Positions 4,795 through 24,423 of a stretch of 64,000 nt of DNA are shown piece by piece. Origin of the DNA: Falsochrobactrum shanghaiense (lineage in GTDB: Bacteria; Pseudomonadota; Alphaproteobacteria; Rhizobiales; Rhizobiaceae); NCBI RefSeq assembly GCF_003149535.1, contig NZ_QGDB01000002.1:62001-126000 (forward strand), written 5' to 3'. Under the pieces are notes generated by a model. That model made no database searches and was not told the origin of the DNA. It worked only from the letters and a program-made list of their open reading frames with translations. How positions within the stretch are numbered: position 1 is the first letter of the stretch; every line of letters starts with the position of its first letter. Made by a program: the position numbers and the translations under genes.

Positions 4795-4810
4795 TTGCCG
4801 TCAGGAAAGA

Positions 4811-6850
4811 ATGAACATGTCACAGGACCCGCTACTGCAACCCTTTCAGCTAAAGAACCTGACATTGCGCAACCGGATTGTCAGCACCTCGCATGAGCCC
4901 GCCTATGGCGAACAGGGCATGCCAAAGGACCGTTATCGCCTTTATCATGTCGAGAAGGCCAAAGGCGGGGTAGGGCTTACGATGATCGGCACTTCCATGG
5001 TGTCGCGCGATAGTCCGTCGTCATTCGGCAGCAATCTCGTTCTGCACAGGCCGGAAATCGAGGGCTGGCTGCGTAAGGTGGCTGATGATGTGCATGCCGA
5101 GGGTGCGGCGCTCATGCTGCAAATCACGCATCTGGGCAGGCGTACAAGCCATTATGCAGGCGACTGGCTGCCCGCACTTTCCGCATCGGCGATCCCCGAG
5201 CCATTCCATCGTGCTACGCCGAAAATTGCCGAGGACTGGGACCTCGAACGCATCATCGCCGATTACGCTGCGGCGGCACTGCGTTGCAGGGAAGCCGGGT
5301 TGGATGGAATCGAGATCGAATGCTACGGTCATCTTTTCGACGGGTTTTTATCGCCGCTGACCAATAAGCGTACCGACCGCTGGGGCGGTTCTGCGGAAAA
5401 GCGGCTCGCTTTTCCCCGTGCTGTGGTTCAGGCGATCCGCAAAGCCGTCGGACCCGACTTTATCGTGGGCCTGCGCGCTGCGATTGATGAGGATGATCCC
5501 GAGGGTGTCGGGCTGGAAGAGGGACTGAACGCCGTTCGGGTTCTTGCCAGTGACGGGATCGACTTTCTGTCGGTCATCAAAGGCACGATTGGCACCGATG
5601 AGGGGCTGGCCCGGGTCATTCCGCCGATGGGCACGCCTTCGGCGCCTTTCCTCGATTTTGCCGGCAAAGTGAAGAAGGCTCTCGATCTGCCCATCATGCA
5701 TGCCGCCCGCATCAATGATGTGGCGACCGCTCGCCATGCGGTCGGCGAGGGGCTTCTGGATCTTGTCGGCATGACACGAGCGATGATGGCCGATCCGCAT
5801 ATCGTCAATAAGGTCGCAACGGGCCTCGCTGATCGTATCCGGCCCTGCGTTGGCGCTACCTATTGCCTGGATGCCCTGCATAGAACGGGCGATTCAAAAT
5901 GTATTCACAACCCTTCCACCGGGCGCGAGGGCGTGCTTCCACACATAATCCCCAGAAGCGCCACTCCGGGACGCCGCGCGGTCGTTGTTGGCGGCGGTCC
6001 CGCCGGGTTGGAAGCCGCAAGAGTGCTGGCCGAGCGCGGGCACAAGGTCACGCTTTTTGAAGCGAATAAACAGCCGGGCGGGCAGATCGTCATAGCAGCC
6101 AAATCGAAACGCCGCCGCGATCTTATCGGGATAGTGGATTGGCGATTGGCCGAAGCGGAAATTCTTGGCGTTGATATACACTGCGGTGTCTATGCCGAGG
6201 TCGATGACGTGCTGGCCGAACGGCCGGATATTGTCATCGTCGCCACCGGCGGACTGCCTGACCGCAGCTTTTTAAAACAGGGCGAAGACCTCGTCGCCGA
6301 CACATGGGAGGTAATGACCGACAGGCCGAAGTCGGGCGATGTGCTGGTATTCGACAATATGGGTGGTCATGCGGGGCTGGATGCGACGGAAACGCTGGTC
6401 AATGGTGGAGCGAAAGTCGAATATGTTACGCCTGCGCGTGTTATTGCACCTGAAGTCGGCCCCCTGACGTCGCCCGGCTATCTGCGCATGTTCGCCGACC
6501 ATGGCGTACAGGTGAGTTTGGGCTGGCGTCTTCATGGTGTCACCCGCGAAGGCGGAAGGCTGGCGGCGCATCTTGTAAACGAATATTCCCAGTCGGCGCG
6601 CACCCGCATTGTTGACCATGTCGTGGTTGAACATGGCACGCTGCCCAATGACGATCTCTATTTCGGCCTGATCCCCTATTCGGTCAATCTTGGAGAGCTT
6701 GATCTCCAGGCCTTCATCGACATCAAGCCTCAAGGCCTCAGGCGTAACGAGAACGGGCGATTTCAGTTGTTCCGTATTGGTGACGCCGTGGCCGGACGCA
6801 ACATCCATGCCGCCATTTATGACGCTGCACGGCTGTGCATGCCCGCTTGA
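4811..6850 (+). CDS. TMADH/N-methylproline-demethylase-like NADH:flavin oxidoreductase
   Basis: A 679-residue two-part flavoenzyme. Residues about 8-340 form an old-yellow-enzyme TIM barrel (LRNRIVSTSHEP, LQITHLGRRTSHYAGDW, GHLFDGFLSPLTNKRTDRWG). A linker that normally binds a 4Fe-4S cluster follows (RPCVGATYC, then KCIHNPSTGRE), and then an NAD(P)/FAD domain with AVVVGGGPAGLEAARVLAERG. The RNRI.STSH start and the Ala in place of the second cluster Cys recall stachydrine/N-methylproline demethylases more than FadH. An oxidative N-demethylase is my best guess. It sits between a TRAP transporter and an aldo/keto reductase. Confidence 0.8.
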   Translation: MNMSQDPLLQPFQLKNLTLRNRIVSTSHEPAYGEQGMPKDRYRLYHVEKAKGGVGLTMIGTSMVSRDSPSSFGSNLVLHRPEIEGWLRKVADDVHAEGAALMLQITHLGRRTSHYAGDWLPALSASAIPEPFHRATPKIAEDWDLERIIADYAAAALRCREAGLDGIEIECYGHLFDGFLSPLTNKRTDRWGGSAEKRLAFPRAVVQAIRKAVGPDFIVGLRAAIDEDDPEGVGLEEGLNAVRVLASDGIDFLSVIKGTIGTDEGLARVIPPMGTPSAPFLDFAGKVKKALDLPIMHAARINDVATARHAVGEGLLDLVGMTRAMMADPHIVNKVATGLADRIRPCVGATYCLDALHRTGDSKCIHNPSTGREGVLPHIIPRSATPGRRAVVVGGGPAGLEAARVLAERGHKVTLFEANKQPGGQIVIAAKSKRRRDLIGIVDWRLAEAEILGVDIHCGVYAEVDDVLAERPDIVIVATGGLPDRSFLKQGEDLVADTWEVMTDRPKSGDVLVFDNMGGHAGLDATETLVNGGAKVEYVTPARVIAPEVGPLTSPGYLRMFADHGVQVSLGWRLHGVTREGGRLAAHLVNEYSQSARTRIVDHVVVEHGTLPNDDLYFGLIPYSVNLGELDLQAFIDIKPQGLRRNENGRFQLFRIGDAVAGRNIHAAIYDAARLCMPA

Positions 6851-6886
6851 AGAATTCCACCTCAACAAAGATAGGTTATATGACAG

Positions 6887-7861
6887 ATGAATTACGTAAA
6901 TCTCGGTAAAAGCGGCTTGAAAATCTCGCGTCTGGCACTCGGATGCATGACCTACGGAGACCCCAAAGCCGGTACGCATGATTGGGCGCTTGGCCTTGAC
7001 GATGCGCGCCCTTTCATCCGGCAGGCAATCGAAGCGGGCATCAATTTTTTCGATACTGCGAATGCTTATTCTGCGGGTGCCAGCGAAGAGGTCGTCGGCC
7101 AGTTGCTCAAGGAGCATGCTTCGCGCGATGATGTCGTGATCGCTACAAAGGTACATTTTCCTGTCGGCAAAGGCGGCCCCAATCGGCAGGGCCTGTCACG
7201 CAAGGCACTGATTGCGGCCTGCGATGCCAGCCTGAAGCGTCTGGGCACGGATTATATCGATCTTTATCAGATCCATCGCTGGGATCCGGAAACGCCGATC
7301 GAAGAGACACTGCAAACGCTTGATGACCTCATTCGCGCGGGCAAGGTGCGTTATATCGGTGCGTCATCCATGTATGCCTGGCAGTTTTCCAAGGCGCTTT
7401 ATACGTCGAAACTCAATGGCTGGGCGCATTTCGTCAGCATGCAGCCGCATTACAATCTGCTTTACCGCGAGGAAGAGCGCGAAATCATTCCGCTTTGTCA
7501 GGATCAGGGTGTTGCTGTCATTCCGTGGAGCCCGCTTGCTCGTGGTCGACTGACCAAGATCACGACGGATAGCGACCGCAGCCGCCACGATCCATTCGCC
7601 AAAAGCCTTTATCTGGACGAGGACGAGAAGATTATCGAAGTGGTCGCGCGTATTGCCAAGAACCGTGATGTGCCCATGGCACAGATCGCTTTGGCATGGA
7701 CTTCGAGCCGACCGGGCATCACCGCGCCGATCATAGGGGCAACAAAGCCGCATCATATTACGGATGCCGTCGCGGCCCTCGATATTTCCTTGACCAAGGA
7801 AGAAATCGCCGAGATGGAACAGTTCTATACGCCGCGATCGGTATCGGGATTGTCGCGCTGA
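6887..7861 (+). CDS. Aldo/keto reductase
   Basis: NADPH-dependent oxidoreductase of the AKR superfamily, 324 residues. The catalytic tetrad can be placed: Asp in NFFDTANAYS, Tyr in the same motif, Lys in VVIATKVHFP and His in LYQIHRWDP. The cofactor region (IPWSPLARGRL, then APIIGATKPHHI) is intact. It lies 36 bp after the flavoenzyme gene and ends the GntR-TRAP cluster. It may process an aldehyde or ketone from the pathway; the substrate is unknown. Confidence 0.88.
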   Translation: MNYVNLGKSGLKISRLALGCMTYGDPKAGTHDWALGLDDARPFIRQAIEAGINFFDTANAYSAGASEEVVGQLLKEHASRDDVVIATKVHFPVGKGGPNRQGLSRKALIAACDASLKRLGTDYIDLYQIHRWDPETPIEETLQTLDDLIRAGKVRYIGASSMYAWQFSKALYTSKLNGWAHFVSMQPHYNLLYREEEREIIPLCQDQGVAVIPWSPLARGRLTKITTDSDRSRHDPFAKSLYLDEDEKIIEVVARIAKNRDVPMAQIALAWTSSRPGITAPIIGATKPHHITDAVAALDISLTKEEIAEMEQFYTPRSVSGLSR

Positions 7862-7870
7862 ATGTAATTT

Positions 7871-7918
7871 AGAGCGCATCCCGAAAAGTGTGAAACGGTT
7901 TTCGGACAAGATGCGCGG
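7871..7918. repeat. Short palindromic Rhizobiales-type intergenic repeat
   Basis: The sequence folds as GCGCATC/GATGCGC outer arms and CCGAAAA/TTTTCGG inner arms around a GTGTGAAACG core. The same GTGTGAAACGG core recurs at 22164, 33886 and, inverted, at 19784. It sits just after the aldo/keto reductase and before the end of a convergent operon, where it could also act as a terminator hairpin. Confidence 0.7.
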
Positions 7919-8037
7919 TAAAAACAAACAGTCAGATCAAAATGGTCCCGTCGGCGCTTTGTGCCGGCGGGAAATTATACCGTACCGGCCGACCCCATCG
8001 GCATGCGGGTTTCAGGAAGCGGGCCTTGCGAGCCGTT

Positions 8038-8568
8038 TTAGCGGTTGGTCTGGAGAGGCATGGCTGTGCCTTGTTGCCATATGAGAGGGACAGGGCACGG
8101 GTTGTCTTCAACCTGAAAGATGTCAATGATCTTTCCAAAATACACGAGATGGCTGCCATATTCATGTACAGCGTCGCGCTCACAGAAGACGGAGGAGAGA
8201 CAGCCTTCAAGCCAGGGCAGGCCCCTCGGGCCTTCGTGCCAGAGAGGGCTTCGGAAACGCTCTGCCCGCGTTTTGGAACTTGAGAACAATCGCAGGATTG
8301 GCTCGTGCGCTATGCTCAGAATGTTCACACAAAATAACCCCGTCTGTTCCAGAACCGGGGCGGCCGACGCGGTGTGATTGATCGCGAACATCATGGAAGG
8401 AGGAGACATCGACAGGGAGTTCGCGGTGGTGACAGCCAGACCATGATAATCACCGGCAGCATCGCGGGTTGTAACCAATGCTACGCCTGTTGCGGCATTG
8501 CGCATCGTCAAACGCAGGCCATTTGCAAGATTTTGATGGAGCAGGTTGCAGGGTGTGGTTTCCGCCAT
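8038..8568 (-). CDS. Flavin reductase-like protein (NtaB/EmoB type)
   Basis: A 176-residue protein of the flavin reductase-like domain family, which supplies FMNH2 to a partner monooxygenase. The FMN-binding start (LRNAATGVALVTTRDAAG-like, then GLAVTTANSLSMSPPSMMFA) is clear. The start is supported by a strong AGGAGG six bases before the ATG. It is the last gene of the leftward operon headed by an NtaA-type monooxygenase, which strongly suggests the two form a two-component system. It lies 44 bp after the hydroxyacid dehydrogenase. Confidence 0.85.
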   Translation of the reverse strand: MAETTPCNLLHQNLANGLRLTMRNAATGVALVTTRDAAGDYHGLAVTTANSLSMSPPSMMFAINHTASAAPVLEQTGLFCVNILSIAHEPILRLFSSSKTRAERFRSPLWHEGPRGLPWLEGCLSSVFCERDAVHEYGSHLVYFGKIIDIFQVEDNPCPVPLIWQQGTAMPLQTNR

Positions 8569-8612
8569 GGATTTCCTCCTTCTTCGTTCATTGGCCCTTT
8601 CGGACCCGCTAC

Positions 8613-9533
8613 CTATCGATTTCGGGTTGTTTCTATGGCCTGACGCATCAGACGCTGAGTGGCTTCACGGGTCTTGAAACCGGCATGGCTGGTCATAGTG
8701 AGATTGGGTGCTGAAAGCAGCGGGTCATCGGGGGGAAGCGGCTCCATTTCGAACACATCCAGCCCGGCATGACGTAAATGACCGGATTTTAGCGCCGCGA
8801 TTAGAGCGCTTGTATCAATGAGACCAGCCCGTGCGGTGTTTATCAGGATCGCTCCGGGGCGCATACGGGCGATATGCGCCGCCGATAGAAAGCCATGCGT
8901 CTGGGGATTTAACGACAGGTGCAGCGAGATGAAGTCGCTGCCGGAAAGCAGATCATCCAGCTCTGTTGCGCAGTCAGCCCATTCCGCAGGCAGCGGCGAA
9001 CGGTTCCAGATTGATACTTTCATGTCGAGGGCCCGAGCCATGCCCGCGAGGCTGCGGGCGATGCCGCCGCCGCCTATCAGCCCCAGCCGCCGCTCGCCCA
9101 GTTCCATACCTTCCAATGGATCCCATATTCCGATACGCAGCGCCCGGTCCATGTCCGCCACCCTGCGCGCAGATGCCAGCATCAGAGCCAGCGCGTGCTC
9201 CGCCACTGCGCGGTCGCCATATCTGGCTACCCTGTCGACGACGATACCTGCCTTGGCGCAATACTCCATGTCGATATAGCTTTGCGGACCACTGCCCAGA
9301 AACAATATACGCTTCAGTCGCGGCAATTGTGACAGAAGCGGTGCGGTCATCATGGTGTGACCGTTCCAGATAACAGTGGCATCCTGGCAGAATTCGGCTA
9401 TCTCCGATGCCGGCATATCGCCGAGATAGACTTTCATGTTTCTGGCATGGTCGGGCCATTCGAGACTGAGCATCTCATACATCAGATCGGAGCAGTCTAT
9501 ATAGGCGACGAAGGGGGAGCTGTTGTGGGTCAC
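8613..9533 (-). CDS. D-2-hydroxyacid dehydrogenase family protein
   Basis: NAD(P)-dependent reductase of 306 residues. The C-terminal nucleotide-binding domain has LGLIGGGGIARSLAG, an unusual GxGxxA version of GxGxxG. The catalytic Arg (NTARAGLID), Glu (DVFEMEPLP) and His (TSHAGFKT) are present. Members include glyoxylate/hydroxypyruvate reductases and phosphoglycerate dehydrogenase. It is encoded between the ABC ATPase (3 bp gap) and the flavin reductase. If the operon degrades aminopolycarboxylates, which release glyoxylate, reduction to glycolate would be a sensible role; this is inference. Confidence 0.85.
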   Translation of the reverse strand: MTHNSSPFVAYIDCSDLMYEMLSLEWPDHARNMKVYLGDMPASEIAEFCQDATVIWNGHTMMTAPLLSQLPRLKRILFLGSGPQSYIDMEYCAKAGIVVDRVARYGDRAVAEHALALMLASARRVADMDRALRIGIWDPLEGMELGERRLGLIGGGGIARSLAGMARALDMKVSIWNRSPLPAEWADCATELDDLLSGSDFISLHLSLNPQTHGFLSAAHIARMRPGAILINTARAGLIDTSALIAALKSGHLRHAGLDVFEMEPLPPDDPLLSAPNLTMTSHAGFKTREATQRLMRQAIETTRNR

Positions 9534-9536
9534 GGG

Positions 9537-11168
9537 TCAGGCACCGATCAGTTGGGACAGGTCATGATGGGCGGCCAAAAGGCTGCGAGTATATTCGGTA
9601 GCCGGATTGGTGAAGACGTCCTCGGTGGGGCCGATCTCCAGTAACCTGCCGTGATACATCACCGCGATACGGTCGCAGATATAACGCGCCACATCGAGGT
9701 CATGGGTGATGAAGATCATCGACATTCCAAGTTCCCTCTGTACATCCGCCAGCAAATTGAGGACGCCGGCGCGTACGGATACGTCCAGCTTCGACACGGC
9801 TTCGTCAGCGATGATTACCTTGGGATTGAGCGCAATGGCGCGGGCGATCGCTACACGCTGGAGTTGTCCGCCGGACATCTCATGCGCATAGCGATCAGCA
9901 TGAAGTGCCTGCAGGCCGACACGCTCCAGAAGCGTGACGATCCGGTCAGAAATATCGGGCTTGGATATACCTGCCGCTACCAGCGCCTCACGCAACGAGG
10001 CACCCATGGTCTTGCGTGGATTGAAGCTGCCGCCGGGATCTTGAAAGATCATTTGCATCTCGCGCCGAAAGCCGCGCAATCGGCTTTCCGCCATATTCGT
10101 AATGTCGCGGCCCTGGTATTCTATCGACCCCTCCATCGGAGTGTAGAGCCTGAGCAGCGTGCGCCCGAGTGTTGTCTTGCCCGAACCGGACTCCCCGAGA
10201 AGCCCCAGGATTTCCCCCGGACGCACATCGAAACTTACCCTGTCGATGGCCTTAAACAGGCTATGCCCACCCGATTGGGGAAAGGAGACACTGAGGCCGC
10301 GCACCTTGAAGAGCGGTGTTTCACCGGCCTGTTTTTCAAGCAACATGCGCTGGGCGGGGCTGGCCTTGGGGCGGCCATTGGCGCCGGCAAGCTCAAGCGC
10401 TGTATCGATCAGACGGCGCGTATAGGGGTGTTGCGGTTTGCGGAACACCTGTTCAGTCGGCCCGGCCTCGACAAGCTCTCCCTTGTTCATTACCGCAACC
10501 CGGTGGCAGAAGGATGCCGCAATCGGCATATCGTGCGTGACAAAGATGACGCTGGCATCAAGCTTGCGCTGCATTTCGAGGAACAGATCCAGCACTTGCT
10601 TCTCGACAATCTTGTCGAGGTTCGTAGTGGGCTCATCGGCGACGATGAGGTGCGGTTTCAAGGCCGCGACCAGTGCTATCAGAGCGCGTTGCAGCATGCC
10701 GCCACTCAATTGGTGGGGATAGAGCGTGACCGTTTCCTGTGCGCGTTTCACTCCGACATCGTTTAGAAGGCGCACAGCCTCGGATTGGAAGCCGTGCTTT
10801 ATGCCGGTACGCCGCAATACATGCTCAAAATGCCAGCCGATGGTCTTGCATGGATTGAAGCTGCCCACGGGGTCTTGAAAGACCATCGCCATGCTGACGC
10901 CGCGCAGGGTGTCGAATTGACTGTCCGGCATTGATTGCAGATCATTGCCTTCAAAGCTCATTTTCTCGGCAATGGCGGTGGCGGTTTGCGGTAGAAGGCG
11001 CAGCAGGGCAAGACCGGTCATTGTCTTGCCGGACCCGGATTCTCCGATGATGCCGAGGATCTCTCCCCGCTTCACAGCAATGTCGACCCCTTTAAGCACT
11101 TCGGTGCGGCTGTCACCCCTGCCAAACGAAACGCGAAGGTTCATCAGTTCAACGAGATATTCGTTCAT
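9537..11168 (-). CDS. Opp/Dpp-type ABC transporter, fused dual ATPase
   Basis: A 543-residue protein with two complete ABC ATPase halves, a fusion of DppD- and DppF-like subunits. Each half has a Walker A (GESGSGKTMT and GESGSGKTTL), a signature (LSGGMLQRALI and MSGGQLQRVAI) and a Walker B (LIVADEPTT and VIIADEAVS). The second half has Ala-Val in place of the usual Pro-Thr after the Walker B Glu. ATG 11168 is chosen over GTG 11186 because it follows the permease stop by 4 bp. It powers the two permeases upstream in the operon. Confidence 0.92.
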   Translation of the reverse strand: MNEYLVELMNLRVSFGRGDSRTEVLKGVDIAVKRGEILGIIGESGSGKTMTGLALLRLLPQTATAIAEKMSFEGNDLQSMPDSQFDTLRGVSMAMVFQDPVGSFNPCKTIGWHFEHVLRRTGIKHGFQSEAVRLLNDVGVKRAQETVTLYPHQLSGGMLQRALIALVAALKPHLIVADEPTTNLDKIVEKQVLDLFLEMQRKLDASVIFVTHDMPIAASFCHRVAVMNKGELVEAGPTEQVFRKPQHPYTRRLIDTALELAGANGRPKASPAQRMLLEKQAGETPLFKVRGLSVSFPQSGGHSLFKAIDRVSFDVRPGEILGLLGESGSGKTTLGRTLLRLYTPMEGSIEYQGRDITNMAESRLRGFRREMQMIFQDPGGSFNPRKTMGASLREALVAAGISKPDISDRIVTLLERVGLQALHADRYAHEMSGGQLQRVAIARAIALNPKVIIADEAVSKLDVSVRAGVLNLLADVQRELGMSMIFITHDLDVARYICDRIAVMYHGRLLEIGPTEDVFTNPATEYTRSLLAAHHDLSQLIGA

Positions 11169-11172
11169 GATG

Positions 11173-12027
11173 CTAGCTCCTCTCACGCAGTCGTGGGTCG
11201 CTTAGATCACGCAGGCCGTCCCCAAGCAGATTGAGACCTAAAAGAGCAGCTGAAATCGCAAGCCCGCTCATGCTGAGAACCCAGGGCGCGCGGCTGAAAT
11301 ATTCACGTCCGTCCGACATGATGCCGCCGAGTGAAGGCGTCGGCGGTTGCACGCCTAAACCGATGAATGACAGACCGGCCTCCAGAATGATGGCAAAGGC
11401 CATGCCGGCGGAAGCTTGCACCAGAAGGGGCGCAGAGATATTCGGAAGAATTTGCGTCAGCATGATCTCGGTAGGCCGCCGGCCCATTAATCGTGCCGCC
11501 TGCACAAAAGGATCATCGCGCACCAGCAGTGTAGAGTTGCGTGCAATTCGGGCGAAGATCGGCAGGTAGACAAGCGAAATCGCAAGAATGATGTTGAAGG
11601 TCGAAAAACCGAACAGGATCATCAGCAACAGGGCGAAAATAAAGCTCGGAAAAGCGAACAGAAGATCGGCAACGCGCATCAATATGACGTCGGTCCAGCC
11701 GCCATGATAGGCGGCGGTCAGGCCCATGCCCCCGCCAACCACGGTGGCAAGCAGGATGGCAACGAAGCTGATCATGAGGGAAACCTGTCCGCCTGCGAGA
11801 ACCCGCACGAGCACGTCGCGGCCGAAACTATCCGTACCAAAGGGATGGAGCAGGCTGGGAGGGGCCAGCGTGGCCATGAAATCCATGTCCTCGGGACCGT
11901 ATGGAAGTATCAGCGGGCCGATGACAACCGCCAGAAATACGGTGACGCAGATGGTCAGACCTGCCAGCGCGGTTTTGTGGTGCAGAAAGCGCCCGGCAAG
12001 CGAGTTGTGCCCAAGAAGATGGATCAT
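11173..12027 (-). CDS. Opp/Dpp-type ABC transporter permease (DppC type)
   Basis: Inner-membrane permease of 284 residues. An N-terminal helix (TICVTVFLAVVIGPLILPYG) is followed by a periplasmic GTDSFGRDVLVRVLAG motif, the hallmark of the DppC branch. The EAA-type loop with GLGVQPPTPSLGGIMSDGR is present. It overlaps the DppB-type gene by 4 bp (ATGA) and is followed closely by the fused ATPase, so all subunits are translationally linked. Confidence 0.92.
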   Translation of the reverse strand: MIHLLGHNSLAGRFLHHKTALAGLTICVTVFLAVVIGPLILPYGPEDMDFMATLAPPSLLHPFGTDSFGRDVLVRVLAGGQVSLMISFVAILLATVVGGGMGLTAAYHGGWTDVILMRVADLLFAFPSFIFALLLMILFGFSTFNIILAISLVYLPIFARIARNSTLLVRDDPFVQAARLMGRRPTEIMLTQILPNISAPLLVQASAGMAFAIILEAGLSFIGLGVQPPTPSLGGIMSDGREYFSRAPWVLSMSGLAISAALLGLNLLGDGLRDLSDPRLRERS

Positions 12028-13040
12028 CGTGACCTCCGGGGATCAAGAATGCTACACAATGCATCCGTCAGCGTATTAACCAGCAGGACGATGGCGAGGA
12101 AGATCACGGTGCAGGCGAGAAGCACCGGGATGTCTCGCAAGAAGGCACCGTCGACCATGAAGGAGCCGACACCCGGAATCCCGAATATGCGCTCAACCAC
12201 GACAACGCCGCCGAGAATATAGCGAATCTGGAGGCCGATGATTGTGAGGTAAGGGATCAGGGCATTACGCAGAGTGAAATGCAAGAAAACGAAGCGTGGT
12301 TTTAATCCGAAGGAACGCGCAGCCGTCACATAGGGGCGGTTCATCGTTTCAAGCAGCACCGCGCGCAATGTGCGGGCAAAGACCGCCGCCATGGGGGCCG
12401 CTATGGCCAATGCCGGCAGAAAGCTGGCATGTATAGATCCTGGAAAATCAGAAAAAGGCGAGACATAGCCATAGGTCGGGAACCAGCCCAGAGAAAGGGC
12501 GAAAAAGAAGATCAGCACATAGCTTAGCCAGAAATCCGGCATCGAGATGCCCAGAACCGAGACTGACGTCGCTATCGTGTCGCCGATCCGCCCACGATGA
12601 TGTGCGGCATAGATGCCGAGCACCAGTGAAATTGCGACAGCCAGAAACAATGCGTAGAAACCGAGGAACAATGTGGCTGGCAACTTGCTGGAAAGCAGGG
12701 TGGAAATCTTCTGCCCGCTGGCAATCGACAGTGAAACGCCGAAGTCGCCCGTTGCGGCATTGCCGAGCCAGGCCAGATATTGCACCAGCACAGGCTTATC
12801 CAGACCATGTTGTCGCTCGAATGCGGATACGGCCTCTGGCGTCGCCTGTTCACCAAGTACGGATAAAGCGGCACTACCGGGTGCGGCCTTGATCGTCAGG
12901 AACACCACCAGAGATCCCACCAGCAACAGGATAATGGCGCTCAGCAGCTTGCCGAACAGCAGCATCAGATGGCGACGCGTAGCCTGCCCCGGAACAGGCA
13001 GGCTACGGCTTTTCTTCACGAGCGATCCGACTTCCGTCAT
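12024..13040 (-). CDS. Opp/Dpp-type ABC transporter permease (DppB type)
   Basis: Inner-membrane permease of 338 residues from ATG 13040; a longer frame to 13148 overlaps the binding-protein gene and is rejected. The ATG shares a base with the binding protein's stop (TAATG), a coupling signal. DppB features are LIILLVGSLVVFLTIKAAPG-like helix 1, the LDKPVLVQYLAWLGNAATGD segment, RAVLLETMNRPYVTAARSFG and VVVERIFGIPGVGSFMVDG. Confidence 0.92.
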   Translation of the reverse strand: MTEVGSLVKKSRSLPVPGQATRRHLMLLFGKLLSAIILLLVGSLVVFLTIKAAPGSAALSVLGEQATPEAVSAFERQHGLDKPVLVQYLAWLGNAATGDFGVSLSIASGQKISTLLSSKLPATLFLGFYALFLAVAISLVLGIYAAHHRGRIGDTIATSVSVLGISMPDFWLSYVLIFFFALSLGWFPTYGYVSPFSDFPGSIHASFLPALAIAAPMAAVFARTLRAVLLETMNRPYVTAARSFGLKPRFVFLHFTLRNALIPYLTIIGLQIRYILGGVVVVERIFGIPGVGSFMVDGAFLRDIPVLLACTVIFLAIVLLVNTLTDALCSILDPRRSR

Positions 13041-14602
13041 TAAACAAGGCTCAATTTTACGAACTGATCGGCAAAGTTGGAATAGGGCTTTTGGACAAAG
13101 CCTTTGACGTTGGAAGCGAGCAGATTGTGAATGTTCGACGTGAAGCACGGAATAATGGGCATTTCCTCGATCGCTTTGGCTTCTATCTCGTGATAAAGCT
13201 CGGCCCGCTTTGCAGGATCGAGTTGCGCGCGCGCCTGTTCGAGCAGGGCATCGATTTCAGGATTGGAGTATTTGCCCATGTTGCGCCAGCCTTCAGTATG
13301 CAGGATGTCGCCGACATATTCATCGGGATCGATAAAGCCCAACCAGCCCCAGACGCCAGCCACGAAATCGCCTGACGTCTGGCGTGCAAAGGCTGCATTG
13401 GAATCTGTTACGCTGACAGTGAATTTCGTGCCAAGCACCTGATTGACCTGGGCTACGAAGATTTCGGCATAACGTTTCCACCAGCCGCCGCCCCATGTCA
13501 CCACCTCAACCGGATGCTCGTCGGCCTTGTATTTCGACTTGGCCAGTTCGGCCTTGGCCGCTTCAGGATTGAAGCTGGTAAGCGGGCGTTCACCGGGCGT
13601 GAAATAGTCGCCGAGAAGTGGCGGGAAGAAGCCGTTAAGCGGCGCCCCTTCGCCGAAGAGGACTGTTTGTACCATCGCCTCGCGCTGGAAGGCCATGGAA
13701 ACCGCGCGGCGGAAGTGGACGTCGTCGAAGGGAGGCTTTTTCAAGTTGAGGGATATAAAGCGAACATTAAGCCCCGGCTGGCGTAACACCTCCACATCGC
13801 TGTTGTTCATCAGCTGCGGCACGTCCGAGGTCGGCACGGTGGAAGTCATATCGATCTGCCCGCCCAGAAGCGCTGTCACGCCGGAAGGCTCCTCTACAAT
13901 GAGAGGCACATGGACGGTTTTGATTGCCGGGGCGCCTTCAAAATAGTCCTCGAAAGCCTCCAGTTTCAGCCCCGTGCCGGCATCCCAGGTCGCCAGCTTG
14001 TATGGACCCGTGCCGACGGGTGTGCGGGCATAGCCCTCTGGTCCAAGCTTTTCATAAGCAGATTTGGAGAGAATCTGGGTTCCGGTGCGGGCATTGGTCA
14101 GGAAGGTCAGAAGCGGAGCGAAGGGGCCTTTGGTGTGGATTGTCAGGTTGAGGTCGTCTATCACTTCGACGGTCTCGATTGCTGCCACTTTAGAGGCATT
14201 GGGCGAAGCAAGGTCCTTGTCGAGCAGACGTTCCAAAGAGAATTTCACGTCTTCTGCAGTCAGCGTCGAACCGTCATGGAATTTGACGCCGCTGCGCAGC
14301 TTGAACCCGAGCGCGCCGTTTTCGTGCAGCTCATAGCTTTCGGCAAGGTCCGGGACGATCTGCATTTTATCGTCAAATGTTAATAGCGCATTATAGAGAC
14401 CCCAGATCATATAGAACTCTGGCACCAGCGATGCCTTGCCGGGATCAAGCGTATTGAGTACGCCATAGCCGGTAATCGCTGCACGCAGCACGGTGTCCTG
14501 AGCAAACGCAACACGCGGCGACATGCCCAGTCCTGCGAGGCCAAGGAGGGCACCCGTGCCCGCCATAAGGCTGCGGCGGCTGAGCTTCATCGTATTTTCC
14601 AT
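13040..14602 (-). CDS. Opp/Dpp-type ABC transporter substrate-binding protein
   Basis: Family 5 extracellular solute-binding protein of 520 residues with a Tat-like signal (KLSRRSLMAGTGALLGLAG, cleavage near VAFAQD). Family marks include LAESYELHENGALGFKLRSG, KFHDGSTLTAEDVKFSLERL and the YARTPVGTGPYKL box. A GGGGA ribosome site seven bases upstream supports the ATG at 14602 over an internal Met. The family binds peptides, opines, nickel and metal-chelate ligands. Next to an NtaA-like monooxygenase it resembles the EppA receptor of EDTA uptake; the ligand is inferred. Confidence 0.9.
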   Translation of the reverse strand: MENTMKLSRRSLMAGTGALLGLAGLGMSPRVAFAQDTVLRAAITGYGVLNTLDPGKASLVPEFYMIWGLYNALLTFDDKMQIVPDLAESYELHENGALGFKLRSGVKFHDGSTLTAEDVKFSLERLLDKDLASPNASKVAAIETVEVIDDLNLTIHTKGPFAPLLTFLTNARTGTQILSKSAYEKLGPEGYARTPVGTGPYKLATWDAGTGLKLEAFEDYFEGAPAIKTVHVPLIVEEPSGVTALLGGQIDMTSTVPTSDVPQLMNNSDVEVLRQPGLNVRFISLNLKKPPFDDVHFRRAVSMAFQREAMVQTVLFGEGAPLNGFFPPLLGDYFTPGERPLTSFNPEAAKAELAKSKYKADEHPVEVVTWGGGWWKRYAEIFVAQVNQVLGTKFTVSVTDSNAAFARQTSGDFVAGVWGWLGFIDPDEYVGDILHTEGWRNMGKYSNPEIDALLEQARAQLDPAKRAELYHEIEAKAIEEMPIIPCFTSNIHNLLASNVKGFVQKPYSNFADQFVKLSLV

Positions 14603-14649
14603 GGTATTTTCCCCTTTTTGTTATTGTGTCGGACGGGCCGGGAGCGCGA

Positions 14650-15987
14650 TCAGGTCAATCCCAGGTTTTCGCGCAGGGTTTTGCCTTCGTATTCGGTGCG
14701 GAAGAGCCCGCGCCTGCGCAACTCCGGCAGGATGAATTCAATAAAGTCATCAAGTGAATTTGGCAGGATTGGCGGGCATAGATTGAAGCCGTCTGCAGCC
14801 CCGGTTTCCATCCAATGCTGCATGTCATCGACGATTTCTTCCGCGGAGCCAATGACGTAGCGCACGGTAAAGCCCGCCGCTACCTGCTCGTAGAGCTGGC
14901 GAATGGTCATGCCGGTCTCGCGCGCCTGCTTTAGAAGTCCGCTGCCGATAGAGATTTTATCGGTGAAATGATCTTCGGGAATTGGCTTGTCAAGATCGTA
15001 GCCGGAGAGATCGCCGGCGAAGCTGTAAAGCTGCGCAAGACCTGCCAGCGGATCGATCAGCGCTTGAAGAGCATCGAACTTCGCCTGCGCCGCTTCGCGT
15101 GTTTCCCCGACATAAAAGGCGAGTGCGGGCATAATCAACGGGGCATTGTTCTTTCGTCCCTGTTGAGCGGCTCGTGCCTTGATGTCCGAATAGAAAGCGC
15201 GTGCCTCGTCAATGTTCTGCGCGACCGAATAGACGACATCGGCATATTGTGCAGCAATATCGCGCCCCTTGTCGGAAGCTCCGGCCTGCACGATCAGCGG
15301 TCTGCCCTGCGGCGTCACTCCCGAGGTCAGCGGCCCGCGGACCTGAAAGTGCTTTCCCTTATGGTCGAGCACATGCATTTTCGTTGGGTCGTAGAACTGA
15401 CCGGTTTTCTTGTCGTGCGTGAATGCGTCCGCTTCAAAGCTGTTCCAAAGGCCGCAAACAACCTCGACGAATTCCTGCGCCCGGTCGTAACGCTCATCCT
15501 TGGGCAGATTCTCGGTGCGGTTAAAATTCAGCGCCTCCTGCTCGGACCATGAGGTAACGACATTCCAACCGGCGCGACCATGGCTGATCATGTCCAGTGA
15601 CGCATAGCGGCGGGCTATGTGATATGGCTCATTATAAGTGGTCGATGATGTCGCAACCAGACCGATATGGCTCGTGGTGGCGGCGATGGCCGAGAGAAGC
15701 GTTAACGGCTCAAGATCGGCATTACGCATGTCATGCGAAAGCGATCCCTCTGGCTTGGCCTCGTTACGCACAGCAAGGCCATCCGCGAAGAATATCATGT
15801 CGAGCTTGGCCTCTTCCGCCTTCCGGGCAATGTCCCGGTAAGCCTCGAAGCGGGTAATGCTGGCCGGATCGAAATCTGGATGCCGCCATGCCGCCAGATG
15901 GTAGCCTAAATATCGCATCGACAGGCCGAGTTTCATATTCTTCAAAACGTTTCCCTCGTCATGTGATTGGGCGTCGATCGGCGCCAT
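14650..15987 (-). CDS. NtaA/SnaA/DszA-family FMNH2-dependent monooxygenase
   Basis: A bacterial-luciferase-fold oxygenase of about 445 residues, or 428 if it starts at the internal ATG 15936. NtaA/EmoA-type features are SMRYLGYHLAAWRHPDFDP at the N-terminus, MIFFADGLAVRNE, SHIGLVATSSTTYNEPYHIA, HGRAGWNVVTSW and RPLIVQAGASDKGRDIAA. The family includes nitrilotriacetate, EDTA, pristinamycin and dibenzothiophene-sulfone monooxygenases. It needs reduced flavin, which the reductase at 8038-8568 can supply. It heads a seven-gene leftward operon and is divergent from a GntR regulator. Confidence 0.88.
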   Translation of the reverse strand: MAPIDAQSHDEGNVLKNMKLGLSMRYLGYHLAAWRHPDFDPASITRFEAYRDIARKAEEAKLDMIFFADGLAVRNEAKPEGSLSHDMRNADLEPLTLLSAIAATTSHIGLVATSSTTYNEPYHIARRYASLDMISHGRAGWNVVTSWSEQEALNFNRTENLPKDERYDRAQEFVEVVCGLWNSFEADAFTHDKKTGQFYDPTKMHVLDHKGKHFQVRGPLTSGVTPQGRPLIVQAGASDKGRDIAAQYADVVYSVAQNIDEARAFYSDIKARAAQQGRKNNAPLIMPALAFYVGETREAAQAKFDALQALIDPLAGLAQLYSFAGDLSGYDLDKPIPEDHFTDKISIGSGLLKQARETGMTIRQLYEQVAAGFTVRYVIGSAEEIVDDMQHWMETGAADGFNLCPPILPNSLDDFIEFILPELRRRGLFRTEYEGKTLRENLGLT

Positions 15988-16010
15988 TGTCTTTTTAGTG
16001 TCTTTTTAGG

Positions 16011-16039
16011 TTATTAAACCTGCTAAGGTATACTGACAA
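16011..16039 (-). promoter_or_regulatory. Leftward promoter with GTATAC operator in the spacer
   Basis: On the minus strand TTGTCA (16039-16034), a 17-base spacer and TAATAA (16016-16011) form a good promoter for the monooxygenase operon. The spacer begins with GTATACC, so TCAGTATACC overlaps the -35 box. The same TCAGTATAC block lies in the spacer of the divergent GntR promoter. Two copies of the 11-mer TGTCTTTTTAG follow between this promoter and the gene. FCD regulators often bind GTATAC-centred sites. Confidence 0.6.
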
Positions 16040-16281
16040 CACTGCGATGCTTGCAAGGGCTTTCTGCAAGAATTTTTGTTTTGAGGCAGGCATTGTGCAG
16101 GATTTGTAACGGGGCCGCTTATCTTTATCGGCGACATGCTTATTGAATAAGCAAATAATTATAATTAGTTAATACGACAACCCATTGCTGGAGCCCCAAC
16201 GTAAAATTGAGTCACGCAGCCCGGATATTAGGGAAGGGTGGATGGATGGGAGGTGAGAGAATAAAAGTGCATAAAGAATCA

Positions 16282-16310
16282 TTGACATATTTCAGTATAC
16301 GGAATTTGAT
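16282..16310 (+). promoter_or_regulatory. Rightward promoter with GTATAC operator in the spacer
   Basis: TTGACA (16282-16287), a 17-base spacer and TTTGAT (16305-16310) form a promoter for the GntR gene at 16339. TCAGTATACG at 16292-16301 lies in the spacer, where a bound repressor would block RNA polymerase. The match to the block at 16028-16036 on the other strand suggests one regulator controls both operons. Confidence 0.6.
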
Positions 16311-16338
16311 AGAAGAACCTGAGTTCGGCTAGAGCAAC

Positions 16339-17055
16339 ATGACACATTCAAATATCATCCAGCCACAAGACGCTACGGATCTGGCGACCGGTCTGGCCTC
16401 CCTTTCGACGGGAGATCTGGTTTATTCCGGACTGAAGCAGCGCATTCTGGGACATGAACTGGAAATGGGTGCTCCTTTACGGGAGGAGGATGTGGCCAAT
16501 TGGTTTGAATCCTCGCGAGCGCCCGCCCGCGACGCTTTGCGCCGACTGGAGCAAGAGGGATTGGTGGTGCGCAACGGACGGCGTTATGCGATCCGCAGTT
16601 TCACTTATCACGAGGTGATGATCACTTATCGGCAACGTGCAGCGCTTGAATTCCTTGCCGTGGAATATGCCGTCAAACGTGGTCAGGCGGCGCTCGCACC
16701 CGTTGAAGCGATCCTGGAGCAGCAGAAGCTTGCGTTTGCAGCCGCCACTCGTTCGCAGTTTAGCCAACTCGACCGCGCATTTCATCTGGCGCTTGCAGAA
16801 CTCAGCGGCCAGCCGCTGCTGGTGAACGAATTAAGTATAATTCTGGATCGCGTCCAGCTTTTACGCACCACCGAATTGCGGCGCGACGCAGGACCGCAGG
16901 GGGCCTATCTGGATCATTGCCGAATCTTCGATGCCCTGAAGCGGGGGCAGGCGAGCATTGCGCAGGCGGAACTGGAATATCACTACGCGACCACCGTGCG
17001 TCTTCATGCCGATCTCGATACCGCTGAAGTCACTACGCCCCCGGAGATGAGATGA
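16339..17055 (+). CDS. GntR-family (FCD) transcriptional regulator
   Basis: A 238-residue regulator with a winged helix-turn-helix (GDLVYSGLKQRILGHELEMG, then RAPARDALRRLEQEGLVVRN) and a C-terminal helical ligand domain. It is divergent from the monooxygenase/ABC operon and overlaps the FAD oxidase gene by 4 bp (ATGA). It is therefore the likely local regulator of both sides. A GntR-type regulator also accompanies the nta genes in NTA degraders, which fits the proposed pathway. Confidence 0.88.
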   Translation: MTHSNIIQPQDATDLATGLASLSTGDLVYSGLKQRILGHELEMGAPLREEDVANWFESSRAPARDALRRLEQEGLVVRNGRRYAIRSFTYHEVMITYRQRAALEFLAVEYAVKRGQAALAPVEAILEQQKLAFAAATRSQFSQLDRAFHLALAELSGQPLLVNELSIILDRVQLLRTTELRRDAGPQGAYLDHCRIFDALKRGQASIAQAELEYHYATTVRLHADLDTAEVTTPPEMR

Positions 17056-18353
17056 CTGATTACGCAGGCGATTGCCAGAACCAATTTCCCTCCCTTTGGT
17101 CCGCCACCGCGACCGAGAATGATCCGTCGACTCCTCTGGATGGCGACACGCGCTGTGATGTTGCCGTTGTCGGTGCGGGTTACACTGGCCTCAGCGCTGC
17201 AATTGAGCTGCAACGTCGGGGCGTTTCGGTGTGCGTGCTGGATGGCGGCTTTCCTGGTTGGGGGGGCTCGGGGCGCAATAGCGGCGCGGTAATCCGTGGT
17301 TTCAAGAACAGCCGCAGCGAATTGGTGAAGGAATTTGGCGAACAGCGCGGTCGCGCAATGGCTGACTTTGGCGCCAAAGTTAGCGCGCGGGTGTTCTCCC
17401 TGATAGACGAGTTTTCCATCCGTTGCGACCTCAAGCGCACCGGCTGGATTCTGCCCGCACATAATAAGGGGGGGCTTGCGCGCATTGAGGAGCGTGTGCG
17501 GCTGTGGACGGAAGACGGCTTTCCGGGGCTTTCGATGATTGCAAGGGAGGATCTGGCGCGCCAACTGGGGTCACAGCATTATATTGGCGGCATGATAGAC
17601 AGCGAGGGCGCATCGCTCAACCCGCTTTCCTATGCACGGGGACTTGCCCGCGCTGCCATGGAGTTCGGTGCCCGCGTGCATCGGGAAACACCGGTCACTC
17701 ATATTCGACAGGCATCGGCTGGCTGGCGGCTTGAAACGCCGCGTGGGGCGGTGCATGCCAAACAAGTTCTTGTGGCGACGGATGCATATTCCAGCGGGCT
17801 TGAAGCCTCACTGGATCGCAGCACCGCGACAGTGCATACAAACATCGTGTCAACCTATCCGCTGCCAAAAGATATTGCCGATTCAATCCTTCCGGGCGAA
17901 CAGGCAGTCTCCGATATTCGCCGCATCCTTTACTACTGGCACAAGGACCCGCATGGCAGGATTCTGTTTGGCACCCGCGGTAGTCTGCGCGGCCCCAACT
18001 CCGAACGTGAATTCAATCATGTGCAAGCTGCCATGCTGTCTGTTTACCCGCAACTTGCGGGGCAGCCGATTGAATTCCGTTGGTCAGGCAAAGTAGGGCT
18101 TACGGGCAATTTTGTGCCTCATATAAATCAACCCAAACCCGGTTTGTGGACTTCGCATGGTTATTGCGGGCGCGGCGTAGCCATGGCCACCGCTTATGGC
18201 ACTCTGGTGGGGCAGGTGATAGCTGCCGATCCGGGGATCGGTGAGTTGCCAGTACCACACGGTCCGGCACCCAGTATGCCGCCGGAGCCATTGCGCGGGA
18301 TGGGAGTGATGGCGGTGACCAATTTTTATCGTCTGCTCGATCTGGTGAATTGA
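17052..18353 (+). CDS. FAD-dependent amine oxidoreductase (DAO family)
   Basis: A 433-residue flavoprotein with a dinucleotide-binding site near residues 35-60 (DVAVVGAGYTGLSAAIELQ), the GWGGSGRNSGAVIRG flavin loop and a C-terminal GLWTSHGYCGRGVAMATAYG segment. It belongs to the DadA/PuuB-like branch that oxidises secondary amines or glutamyl-amines. Its translational coupling to the GntR regulator divergent from the NtaA-like operon makes an iminodiacetate-oxidase-like role (compare EmoC) attractive, but gamma-glutamylputrescine or another amine is equally possible from sequence. Confidence 0.85.
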   Translation: MTDYAGDCQNQFPSLWSATATENDPSTPLDGDTRCDVAVVGAGYTGLSAAIELQRRGVSVCVLDGGFPGWGGSGRNSGAVIRGFKNSRSELVKEFGEQRGRAMADFGAKVSARVFSLIDEFSIRCDLKRTGWILPAHNKGGLARIEERVRLWTEDGFPGLSMIAREDLARQLGSQHYIGGMIDSEGASLNPLSYARGLARAAMEFGARVHRETPVTHIRQASAGWRLETPRGAVHAKQVLVATDAYSSGLEASLDRSTATVHTNIVSTYPLPKDIADSILPGEQAVSDIRRILYYWHKDPHGRILFGTRGSLRGPNSEREFNHVQAAMLSVYPQLAGQPIEFRWSGKVGLTGNFVPHINQPKPGLWTSHGYCGRGVAMATAYGTLVGQVIAADPGIGELPVPHGPAPSMPPEPLRGMGVMAVTNFYRLLDLVN

Positions 18354-18357
18354 AGCG

Positions 18358-18382
18358 CAGATGGTCCTCACCCGACCATCTG
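18358..18382. terminator. Bidirectional hairpin between convergent genes
   Basis: A perfect nine-base inverted repeat, CAGATGGTC and GACCATCTG, with a seven-base loop lies in the 37 bp between the convergent FAD oxidase and NDH-2 genes. Neither side has a long T-run, so it is a likely rather than certain terminator. Confidence 0.55.
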
Positions 18383-18390
18383 GCCCCGGC

Positions 18391-19683
18391 TCAATCCATG
18401 CGAATCTTCGGTCGTACTGCGGAAGCAATTGCATCCGACAGCCAGATCATGCTGGCGCGACCGAGTCCGTGCAATTCGGCCTGATGCAGCCGATAGAGCA
18501 TGGCATGGCTCAACTGAGCGAAACGCCCTCTGATGAAGCGATTGCGAAACAGTCCGTGCCGTCCGAGCGTGCCGAAGGCATTATAGCGACTCAGCGAAAC
18601 TAACGAGCCGAGATCGCGCACGGAGAAGGGAGGAATGGGCTGCCCTTCCAGCCAGCGCGGCACATGCCGGCCCAGATGCATCGCCTGCTGGCGCGCTACC
18701 TGAGCGGTAGGCGGTAGCGGCCTGAGCGCGCCAACGGGTGTGAAACTGGCGCAATCGCCCAGGGCGAACACTCGGTCACCTGTTGTCGCCTGCAGCGTCG
18801 GCCCGACCTTCACCTGGCCGGAAGGCGTTAATTCGAAGCCATTGAGCGCGGCAATGACATCCTGTGCCTTGACGCCTGCCGCCCAGACCCGCAGCGAAGC
18901 CTCGATGCGCGAACCATCGTCAAGGATGAAGCCGTTTGCGTCCGCGCTGACGACGCGGGTGCCCGTACGAACGTTGATGCCCAGCGTCCTCAACTGTTCG
19001 GTCGCGGCCTGCGCAACCTCCTCCGGAAAGGCGGCAAGGATACGCGGGCCGCTTTCGATCAGCGTCAGTTCCAGTTTGGGGCGCAGGTTGCCCGCACCGT
19101 AGCTGGCGACGATGTCGAGCAACTGGCTGATTTCGGCAGCCAGTTCCACACCGGTGGCACCACCGCCAACGATGGCGATTGTTAGCGGCTTGCCAAGTTC
19201 TGCCGTGCGGAGCAGGTCCGTATAGAGCCGATCATTGAAAGCCTCTGCCTGTTGCAGATCGTCAATGAACTGGCAGTGCTCCACCACGCCCGGGGTGCCG
19301 AAATCATTGGCCTTGCTGCCTGCAGCCAGAAACAGGCTGTCATATGGGATGATGCGTTCCCCAAGAACTTCCTCGCCACGGGCCGAGACCACCGGACTGA
19401 CTGTAATTTGTTGTGCCGCCCGGTCGATCTGCTGCATGGCTCCGGGTAAAAAGCGAAACGAGCACCGTGCAGCCTGTGCAACGAACGAGATGCGCTGCTG
19501 GTAGGAATTCGCCGTGCCAGCGGCGAAAGTATGGAGCATCGGTTTCCATACATGGGCCCCGCTGCGGTCGAGTAACGTAATATCGGCGCGGTCGGTGCGA
19601 CCCAGCCGCTTGCCCAGTTGCGTCGCCAGCGCCAAGCCTGCAATGCCGCCGCCCACGATGACGATACGTTCCCGGATTGCCAT
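18391..19683 (-). CDS. ndh: Type II NADH dehydrogenase (NDH-2)
   Basis: Single-subunit, non-proton-pumping NADH:quinone oxidoreductase at the inner membrane; 430 residues from ATG 19683 (the frame extends to 19743). Two nucleotide-binding folds are clear: RIVIVGGGIAGLALATQLG for FAD and IAIVGGGATGVELAAEIS for NADH. Further marks are WKPMLHTFAAGT, YDSLFLAAGSKANDFGTPG and VFALGDCASFTP. The C-terminal amphipathic stretch would attach it to the membrane. It gives an electron-entry route that bypasses complex I. Confidence 0.9.
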   Translation of the reverse strand: MAIRERIVIVGGGIAGLALATQLGKRLGRTDRADITLLDRSGAHVWKPMLHTFAAGTANSYQQRISFVAQAARCSFRFLPGAMQQIDRAAQQITVSPVVSARGEEVLGERIIPYDSLFLAAGSKANDFGTPGVVEHCQFIDDLQQAEAFNDRLYTDLLRTAELGKPLTIAIVGGGATGVELAAEISQLLDIVASYGAGNLRPKLELTLIESGPRILAAFPEEVAQAATEQLRTLGINVRTGTRVVSADANGFILDDGSRIEASLRVWAAGVKAQDVIAALNGFELTPSGQVKVGPTLQATTGDRVFALGDCASFTPVGALRPLPPTAQVARQQAMHLGRHVPRWLEGQPIPPFSVRDLGSLVSLSRYNAFGTLGRHGLFRNRFIRGRFAQLSHAMLYRLHQAELHGLGRASMIWLSDAIASAVRPKIRMD

Positions 19684-19783
19684 ATTCGTACTCCAATGAA
19701 AGAATTCAGGGGCAACACGCCTTGTTTGCGTCGCTTTTCCCAAGGTTTGGTTGTTATTTGATCGGCATTCCGGCCGGTTGGCC

Positions 19784-19887: not shown

Positions 19888-20081
19888 GAACTGCACTCTT
19901 GCGGGGGGGCGGATGTTTCGCCTTTTCAATTCTGCTCACATAGACGTTCGGCGCCTGCTTTTCCACTTCAGAATCCTTTGATAAGGCATCAGGCGTGATC
20001 TGCATGGTATTAATTGTTCCATTATAAATAATTTTAATTACAATAGTCCTGTTATGATTTTATATACAAATAAGAAGCAAA

Positions 20082-22152: not shown

Positions 22153-22163
22153 AACAACAACTT

Positions 22164-24421: not shown

Positions 24422-24423
24422 TC

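What the first reader, a model, noticed from the sequence alone, without database searches (positions are those of the whole stretch)
8038..18353. Candidate aminopolycarboxylate (NTA/EDTA/iminodiacetate-like) catabolic locus
One divergent locus holds an NtaA/EmoA-family monooxygenase, its likely flavin reductase (at the far end of the same operon), a complete Opp-type importer, a 2-hydroxyacid dehydrogenase, a GntR regulator and an FAD amine oxidase. In NTA/EDTA degraders, EmoA/NtaA plus flavin reductase releases glyoxylate and iminodiacetate; EmoC oxidises iminodiacetate; and an Opp-type transporter (Epp) imports the chelate. A glyoxylate-reducing dehydrogenase would complete it. The gene set matches step by step, but the substrate is inferred and this family also includes SnaA and DszA.
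Basis: partly seen in the sequence, partly recalled or inferred. Interest (0 to 1): 0.8.

Follow-up and report, generated by a model that had tools for sequence, protein, structure and literature searches.

The report
Mobile import-and-oxidise catabolic gene cassette
A nine-gene block, apparently moved as one unit between bacteria, encodes an importer, a two-part flavin monooxygenase, an amine-oxidase-type enzyme and their switch; it probably breaks down an unknown N-substituted amino acid, but nothing shows that it degrades the chelators NTA or EDTA.

Summary
All nine genes are present as described, in two divergent operons. They form a discrete cassette: a 97.9%-identical copy of window 8037-18356 lies in Brucella pecoris between unrelated flanks, while two other window stretches match that genome at about 63-75% apart from short repeats. 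Seven module copies were examined. Each has two near-palindromes, TTTCRGTATAC (11 of 14 exact, 3 one base off); in Thioclava the same site ties the monooxygenase-importer operon to a GntR-oxidase pair about 155 kb away. So the set works as one regulated unit.

The NTA/EDTA reading is weakened: the monooxygenase is in the NtaA/DmoA family but 30% identical to EmoA, against 42% to CmoJ, in its own uncharacterised clade. NtaA, SnaA and EmoA could not be placed in the tree. The oxidase resembles glycine, sarcosine and MnmC-type amine oxidases, so an N-substituted amino acid is the best guess (0.4). Against it: 11 of 11 monooxygenase-free importer relatives have a GlpD-like FAD enzyme nearby, and neighbouring monooxygenase clades use other transporters. 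The substrate is unresolved.

The parts
8037..18356 (.). whole cassette: block shared with Brucella pecoris (97.9% DNA identity) whose flanks are unrelated
   Evidence: 10,320-base alignment; boundaries; no tblastx match of the B. pecoris flanks to the window at E 1e-5
8038..8568 (-). flavin reductase (PF01613), presumed FMNH2 supplier
   Evidence: Neorhizobium carries a non-orthologous reductase (23% identity) at the same locus
8613..9533 (-). D-2-hydroxyacid dehydrogenase, probably a 2-oxoacid reductase (inferred)
   Evidence: motif blocks GGGGIA, NTARAG, DVFEMEP, SHAG; in 5 of 7 module copies
9537..11186 (-). ABC ATPase with two nucleotide-binding domains (Opp/Dpp/Gsi type)
11173..12027 (-). 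ABC permease, OppC type
12024..13040 (-). ABC permease, OppB type (start in the SBP stop codon)
13040..14602 (-). periplasmic binding protein, SBP_bac_5
   Evidence: relatives at 49% or more in 10 of the 54 plasmid records matched
14650..15987 (-). FMN-dependent luciferase-like monooxygenase, NtaA/DmoA family (true start probably near 15936)
16022..16039 (-). operator copy 2 (TTGTCAGTATACCTTAGC; one base off the consensus), upstream of the monooxygenase operon
16290..16305 (+). operator copy 1 (TTTCAGTATACGGAAT), upstream of GntR-DAO
16339..17055 (+). GntR/FCD regulator
   Evidence: relatives at 53-58% in Salipiger, L219, Neorhizobium, Paroceanicella and Thioclava
17052..18353 (+). FAD-dependent amine-oxidase-type enzyme (DAO/AmaA/glycine-oxidase-like)

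Best explanation
A horizontally mobile, GntR-controlled catabolic cassette. The Opp-type importer takes up a small anionic N-substituted amino acid (aminopolycarboxylate- or opine-like in the broad sense). The flavin reductase, or a host reductase, feeds FMNH2 to the luciferase-like monooxygenase, which oxygenates the carbon next to the heteroatom and releases a 2-oxoacid or aldehyde. The FAD enzyme oxidises the remaining secondary amine. The dehydrogenase reduces the released 2-oxoacid. GntR binds the two TTTCRGTATAC sites and is released by the inducer. Shown here: gene content, conservation as a unit, co-transfer, shared operator-like sites, conserved core of the FMN site. Inferred: substrate class, order of steps, cleaved bond, DNA binding and the role of the dehydrogenase.
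For: Module conserved in window, L005, L006/L207, L219, L103, L104 and L105. Near-identical block with unrelated flanks in B. pecoris. Two operator copies in the promoter region of each of the seven copies, 11 of 14 exact and 3 one base off. In Thioclava the operator links two distant operons, and the distant GntR, not the one near the operon, is the closer relative, 53% against 30%. DAO profile: first solved relatives are glycine oxidase, L-amino acid deaminase, sarcosine oxidase and dimethylglycine dehydrogenase; AmaA and MnmC models match 9 of 9 members. The monooxygenase keeps 4 of 6 FMN-contact residues of BdsA (Val144, Ser146, Arg166, Tyr167) and folds confidently as a family member. A different flavin reductase lies at the Neorhizobium copy. 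In Thioclava an operator lies between a chemoreceptor gene and a polar-amino-acid ABC transporter.
Against: No substrate is known to me for any member of the clade. Neighbouring monooxygenase clades sit with transporters of other kinds: annotated polyamine type with SHMT and what looks like a taurine type (by eye). The 11 importer relatives without the monooxygenase all have a GlpD-like FAD enzyme within about 7 kb, and 4 of 11 an MmgE/PrpD protein, which would suit a hydroxy- or polycarboxylate without nitrogen. The dehydrogenase and flavin reductase are not in every copy. The DAO's match to known oxidases is distant (AmaA 261 bits, cut-off 600).
Confidence: 0.4

Rival explanations
1. Literal first-reader reading: an NTA/EDTA/iminodiacetate catabolic locus, with the monooxygenase acting as EmoA/NtaA, the DAO as iminodiacetate oxidase and the importer as EppABCD.
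For: Same broad gene classes as the BNC1 pathway described in PMC7312458 (EmoA/EmoB, IdaA, EppABCD). TIGR03860 match. Oxidase of the glycine/sarcosine type. 3sdo, named nitrilotriacetate monooxygenase and treated as such in PMC5819316 (passages), is 42% identical; I know of no assay of it (recall).
Against: EmoA scores lowest of 11 full-length family sequences (7th of 11) and is 30% identical on structure, no closer than LadA, DmoA or HcbA1 at 29-32%. PMC7312458 reports EppA at no more than 22.7% identity to PDB binding proteins, whereas this binding protein scores 172 bits to 5u4o. A module copy is in a Mariana Trench isolate.
Confidence: 0.07
2. Thioether or S-conjugate salvage: the monooxygenase cleaves a C-S bond, as CmoJ or YxeK do, of an imported cysteine or glutathione conjugate.
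For: CmoJ is the nearest characterised relative by sequence (mechanism in PMC10863075). ATPase nearest to the glutathione importer GsiA model. Gamma-glutamyltransferase near two importer relatives, L109 and L227. ASL-superfamily lyase beside the Thioclava operon; a lyase also serves one 2-succinocysteine pathway (PMC9706529).
Against: CmoJ groups elsewhere in the tree, with L137 and L121 (97/96), not with the window clade. No N-acetyltransferase, deacetylase or second monooxygenase among the nine genes. An amine-type oxidase is not part of the pathway described. The Thioclava lyase is divergent (best NCBIfam 119.8 bits, cut-off 575) and the ASL GSSxMPxKxN signature (recalled) is not visible in it.
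Confidence: 0.15
3. Catabolism of a nitrogen heterocycle or of an amine-free polycarboxylate: the monooxygenase hydroxylates or opens the ring, and the DAO acts on a cyclic imine or a hydroxyacid.
For: L-pipecolate oxidase AmaA is the best model for the DAO. Importer relatives occur with PrpD-like and GlpD-like enzymes. A family member at 52% identity lies in a Vibrio cluster with citrate synthase and aconitase. Nicotinate dehydrogenase genes lie near the Neorhizobium copy.
Against: The GlpD/PrpD association was seen only where the monooxygenase is absent. Nicotinate genes are not annotated near the Paroceanicella or Thioclava copies.
Confidence: 0.2

Closest known systems
CmoJ (YtnJ) of Bacillus subtilis, alkylcysteine sulfoxide C-S monooxygenase
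   Same: Nearest characterised relative of the monooxygenase by sequence (343.8 bits), 42% structure-aligned identity, same FMN-site Ser/Arg/Tyr; works with a flavin reductase (PMC10863075)
   Different: Different branch of the tree; pocket positions 23, 29 and 255 differ; no acetylation/deacetylation genes or second monooxygenase among the nine genes
EmoA-EmoB-IdaA-EppABCD pathway of Chelativorans sp. BNC1 (EDTA/NTA)
   Same: Same broad classes: FMNH2 monooxygenase plus reductase, an oxidase that releases glyoxylate, cluster-C ABC importer (PMC7312458 introduction)
   Different: Monooxygenase 30% identical to EmoA and EmoA lowest of 11; double-domain ATPase; divergent GntR-DAO pair and hydroxyacid dehydrogenase; EDTA or NTA activity unknown
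BdsA/DszA and 3sdo (named nitrilotriacetate monooxygenase)
   Same: Highest structural Z (48.9 and 48.2); 40% and 42% identity
   Different: DszA lies outside the window clade and 5 of 7 substrate-contact residues differ (F12, H20, F246, H316, V372 are S, Y, Y, F/Y, G); 3sdo was not in the tree
Glycine/sarcosine oxidase, MnmC and AmaA families (DAO)
   Same: FAD oxidases of glycine, N-substituted glycines and cyclic amino acids; best profile matches
   Different: All far below curated cut-offs for the window protein (AmaA 261 of 600 bits, MnmC 55 of 174)

Membership tests
NtaA/DmoA-family FMN monooxygenase (TIGR03860) | score above the curated cut-off; core of the FMN site kept | tested here: met
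NTA/EDTA aminopolycarboxylate pathway | monooxygenase closest to EmoA among known structures | tested here: not met
   EmoA scores lowest of 11 full-length family sequences and is 30% identical, against 38-45% for CmoJ, BdsA, 3sdo and 7e36
NTA/EDTA aminopolycarboxylate pathway | monooxygenase in one branch with NtaA and EmoA | tested here: inconclusive
   tree of 87 rows holds neither NtaA nor EmoA nor SnaA: sequences not obtained here
NTA/EDTA aminopolycarboxylate pathway | separate NADH:flavin reductase partner | tested here: met
   8038-8568, PF01613, cofactor and partnership inferred; a flavin reductase was found beside only 3 of 7 module copies
NTA/EDTA aminopolycarboxylate pathway | iminodiacetate oxidase (IdaA) orthologue | tested here: inconclusive
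   DAO profile finds glycine oxidase, L-amino acid deaminase and sarcosine oxidases first; no chain named iminodiacetate oxidase in the 60 of 133 rows shown
NTA/EDTA aminopolycarboxylate pathway | EppA-type binding protein | tested here: inconclusive
   EppA not recognisable by name in the 60 of 105 rows shown; the fold of this binding protein was not computed
NTA/EDTA aminopolycarboxylate pathway | oxidation of NTA, EDTA or iminodiacetate | not testable with these tools
   needs enzyme assay
CmoJ cysteine-salvage pathway | monooxygenase in the CmoJ branch | tested here: not met
   CmoJ groups with L137 and L121 (97/96), away from the window clade
CmoJ cysteine-salvage pathway | N-acetyltransferase and deacetylase encoded in the locus | tested here: not met
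   none among the nine genes; elsewhere in the genome not searched
Opp/Dpp-type ABC importer | SBP_bac_5, two BPD_transp_1 permeases, two ABC domains | tested here: met
GntR/FCD autoregulated divergent operon | conserved palindromic operator in the divergent promoter region | tested here: met
   two TTTCRGTATAC sites in 7 of 7 module copies, 11 of 14 exact and 3 one base off; in Thioclava both lie before the monooxygenase operon and the GntR is elsewhere; DNA binding itself not tested

The most novel reading that the evidence does not exclude
The cassette defines a new, naturally evolved pathway for biogenic aminopolycarboxylates or opine-like compounds (for example phytosiderophore, EDDS or aspergillomarasmine-type molecules), with a dedicated clade of NtaA-family monooxygenases and its own GntR operator, spreading as a mobile unit through plant-associated, marine and other alphaproteobacteria. 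It would show where chelator-degrading enzymes come from.
Probability: 0.18. Interest if true: 0.65.

Novelty: new variant of a known kind. Interest (0 to 1): 0.42.

Why it matters
NtaA-family monooxygenases get named nitrilotriacetate monooxygenase by similarity alone (for example the Neorhizobium genes). This locus shows an uncharacterised clade of them fixed in one conserved, mobile, operator-defined unit, so one assay on one module could name the substrate of the clade and correct such annotations. The regulator and operator also give a direct way to find the inducer, and hence probably the substrate.

Tried and rejected
Placing EmoA, NtaA and SnaA in the tree: EmoA (5dqp) never came among the five printed PDB alignments (three printed); guessed BNC1 plasmid accessions are not held. 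I used bit scores and structure-aligned identity instead.

Lyase and PrpD as support for aminopolycarboxylates: the Thioclava lyase's best PDB match is 6g3d (named argininosuccinate lyase in the list; EDDS lyase by recall; 78.8 bits), and the best match of the Azospirillum PrpD is IDS epimerase (62.4 bits, but the IRG1-type 7bra has 56.0). I rejected both as decisive. The lyase's best NCBIfam model is XcbC and the ASL signature (recalled) is not visible; PrpD was found in 4 of the 11 monooxygenase-free loci.

Genome-wide regulon in the own genome: only the cassette site matches TTTCNGTATAC exactly (1, against 6 for the reversed control). The looser pattern is less frequent than its control (9 against 21). 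So no wider regulon is seen there. The Thioclava sites at 348586 and 348651 may belong to another GntR, and a loose Neorhizobium site was taken as chance. The chemoreceptors of Paroceanicella and Thioclava align only in their C-terminal part, so chemotaxis is not used as evidence.

A fold of the binding protein was not obtained. RNA families: no match in 7700-22500; tRNA: none in the window. The row G548 (L208, a 3.2-kb contig) was too short to read its context and is not counted.
Full report
What is there. The window is G000:C12:62001-126000 of a 3.84-Mb genome. Its genus, by the tool's kinship labels, also holds G028, whose contig carries the same locus at the same coordinates as the named Brucella pecoris record L005; this is Brucella in the broad sense that includes Ochrobactrum. 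The genome has four luciferase-family genes, and only this one matched in a search with the window monooxygenase. Spacing argues for one operon running from the monooxygenase to the flavin reductase and a divergent two-gene operon GntR-DAO.

A discrete, recently moved cassette. B. pecoris L005 matches the window over 10,320 bases, 18356 down to 8037, at 97.9% identity, and the match ends at the outer ends of the flavin reductase and DAO genes. The B. pecoris flanks show no tblastx match to the window at E 1e-5. Two other window stretches, 18391-26000 and 38000-45900, match the B. pecoris genome (G028) only in pieces: in the matches listed, coding stretches at about 63-75%, apart from short dispersed repeats at up to 94% (the list is cut). 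In eight of the nine genes 141 differing codons are synonymous and 23 are not; the monooxygenase was left out of this count because its alignment has a gap. The DAO occurs at E of 1e-120 or better in 2 of 35 genomes of the genus (own and G028). The binding protein occurs at 1e-100 or better in 1 of 199 family genomes searched (own) and at 1e-110 or better in 9 of 385 class genomes, own included.

The module elsewhere. Monooxygenase, binding protein, both permeases and the double ATPase are in 7 of 7. GntR-DAO is adjacent in 6 of 7. The hydroxyacid dehydrogenase is in 5 of 7. A flavin reductase was found beside 3 of 7, and the Neorhizobium one is no close relative of the window's (23% identity). 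A second Thioclava record (H4) was listed but not examined.

Operator. The divergent intergenic region carries two copies of TTTCRGTATAC with partial dyad symmetry, one before each operon (window 16022-16039 and 16290-16305). Two copies are present in all seven modules: 11 of 14 fit exactly, and 3 (one in the window, both in L219) are one base off. In Thioclava both copies lie before the monooxygenase operon, which has no related GntR-DAO pair beside it. The closer GntR relative (53% to the window, while the gene near the operon has 30%) and a DAO (51%) lie about 155 kb away on the same plasmid, and two exact TTTCNGTATAC sites lie just before them. The plasmid has 7 exact sites, the reversed control 2. 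One further site lies between a chemoreceptor gene and a polar-amino-acid ABC transporter, and two lie between an oxygenase gene and a nucleoside hydrolase gene. This is the best evidence that monooxygenase, importer and DAO serve one pathway. The sigma-70 scan of the region is no better than shuffles.

The oxidase. A profile of nine DAO relatives finds glycine oxidase, L-amino acid deaminase, sarcosine oxidase and dimethylglycine dehydrogenase first among solved structures. L-pipecolate oxidase AmaA and MnmC models match 9 of 9 members, well below cut-offs for the window protein. Such enzymes act on glycine, N-substituted glycines or cyclic amino acids; MnmC removes a carboxymethyl group from nitrogen (general knowledge). 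This is why I keep an N-substituted amino acid as substrate.

What speaks against it. Eleven importer relatives without the monooxygenase (L155-L157, L220-L227) all have a GlpD-like FAD enzyme within about 7 kb, in 8 of 11 as the next matched gene to the binding protein, and 4 of 11 have a PrpD-like protein. Those would suit hydroxy- or polycarboxylates. Gamma-glutamyltransferase near L109 and L227, and the GsiA-like ATPase, point weakly to glutathione-derived compounds. A related monooxygenase in Vibrio tubiashii is inside what looks like a biosynthetic cluster.

Chelator pathway compared. PMC7312458 (abstract and sections 3, 7 and 10 seen) describes EmoA/EmoB, IdaA and EppABCD, with glyoxylate released at each oxidative cleavage. 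The present set resembles it by class; by sequence its monooxygenase is not close to EmoA. I do not file the locus as an NTA/EDTA system. CmoJ chemistry was taken from PMC10863075 (parts 1 and 2 of 3), and the 2-succinocysteine lyase from PMC9706529 (abstract, outline and start of the introduction).

Literature. Among the rows listed in searches (titles and starts of abstracts; several lists were capped) none describes this nine-gene cassette; one search listed nothing. Only openly licensed PMC papers were searched.

Verdict. Observation confirmed; chelator reading only partly supported; a mobile, operator-defined variant of a known kind of catabolic operon with substrate unknown.

Noticed in passing
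window 19784-19887 and 22145-22216: Short repeats (about 100 and 70 bp) with dozens of copies, mostly at 80-97% identity, in related genomes; probably dispersed repeats of the genus.
   Followed up: no
window 1140-7861: Neighbouring plus-strand run: a GntR-like regulator (by eye), TRAP transporter genes, an old-yellow-enzyme/FAD fusion (454 bits to the mycofactocin OYE 2 model, cut-off 793) and an aldo-keto reductase; outside the block shared with B. pecoris.
   Followed up: partly
L155:7004-18885, L156, L157, L220-L227: A second recurrent context of the same importer clade: GlpD-like FAD enzyme within about 7 kb in 11 of 11, PrpD-like protein in 4; no monooxygenase.
   Followed up: partly
L110:1-13029 (Vibrio tubiashii plasmid p251): NtaA-family monooxygenase (52% identical) inside a cluster with citrate synthase, aconitase, adenylation and ATP-grasp genes: a possible biosynthetic use of this family.
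   Followed up: no
L186:7585-7984 (Thioclava sp. GXIMD2076 plasmid p3, record position 77784): A symmetrical cassette-type operator lies between a chemoreceptor gene and a polar-amino-acid ABC transporter, perhaps another regulon member.
   Followed up: partly
L107:19067-21584 and L113:9540-10925: Further NtaA-family genes with dipeptide-type transporters, one beside a threonine aldolase gene, on Neorhizobium and Salipiger plasmids; some genomes hold many family copies (17 matches in G024).
   Followed up: no
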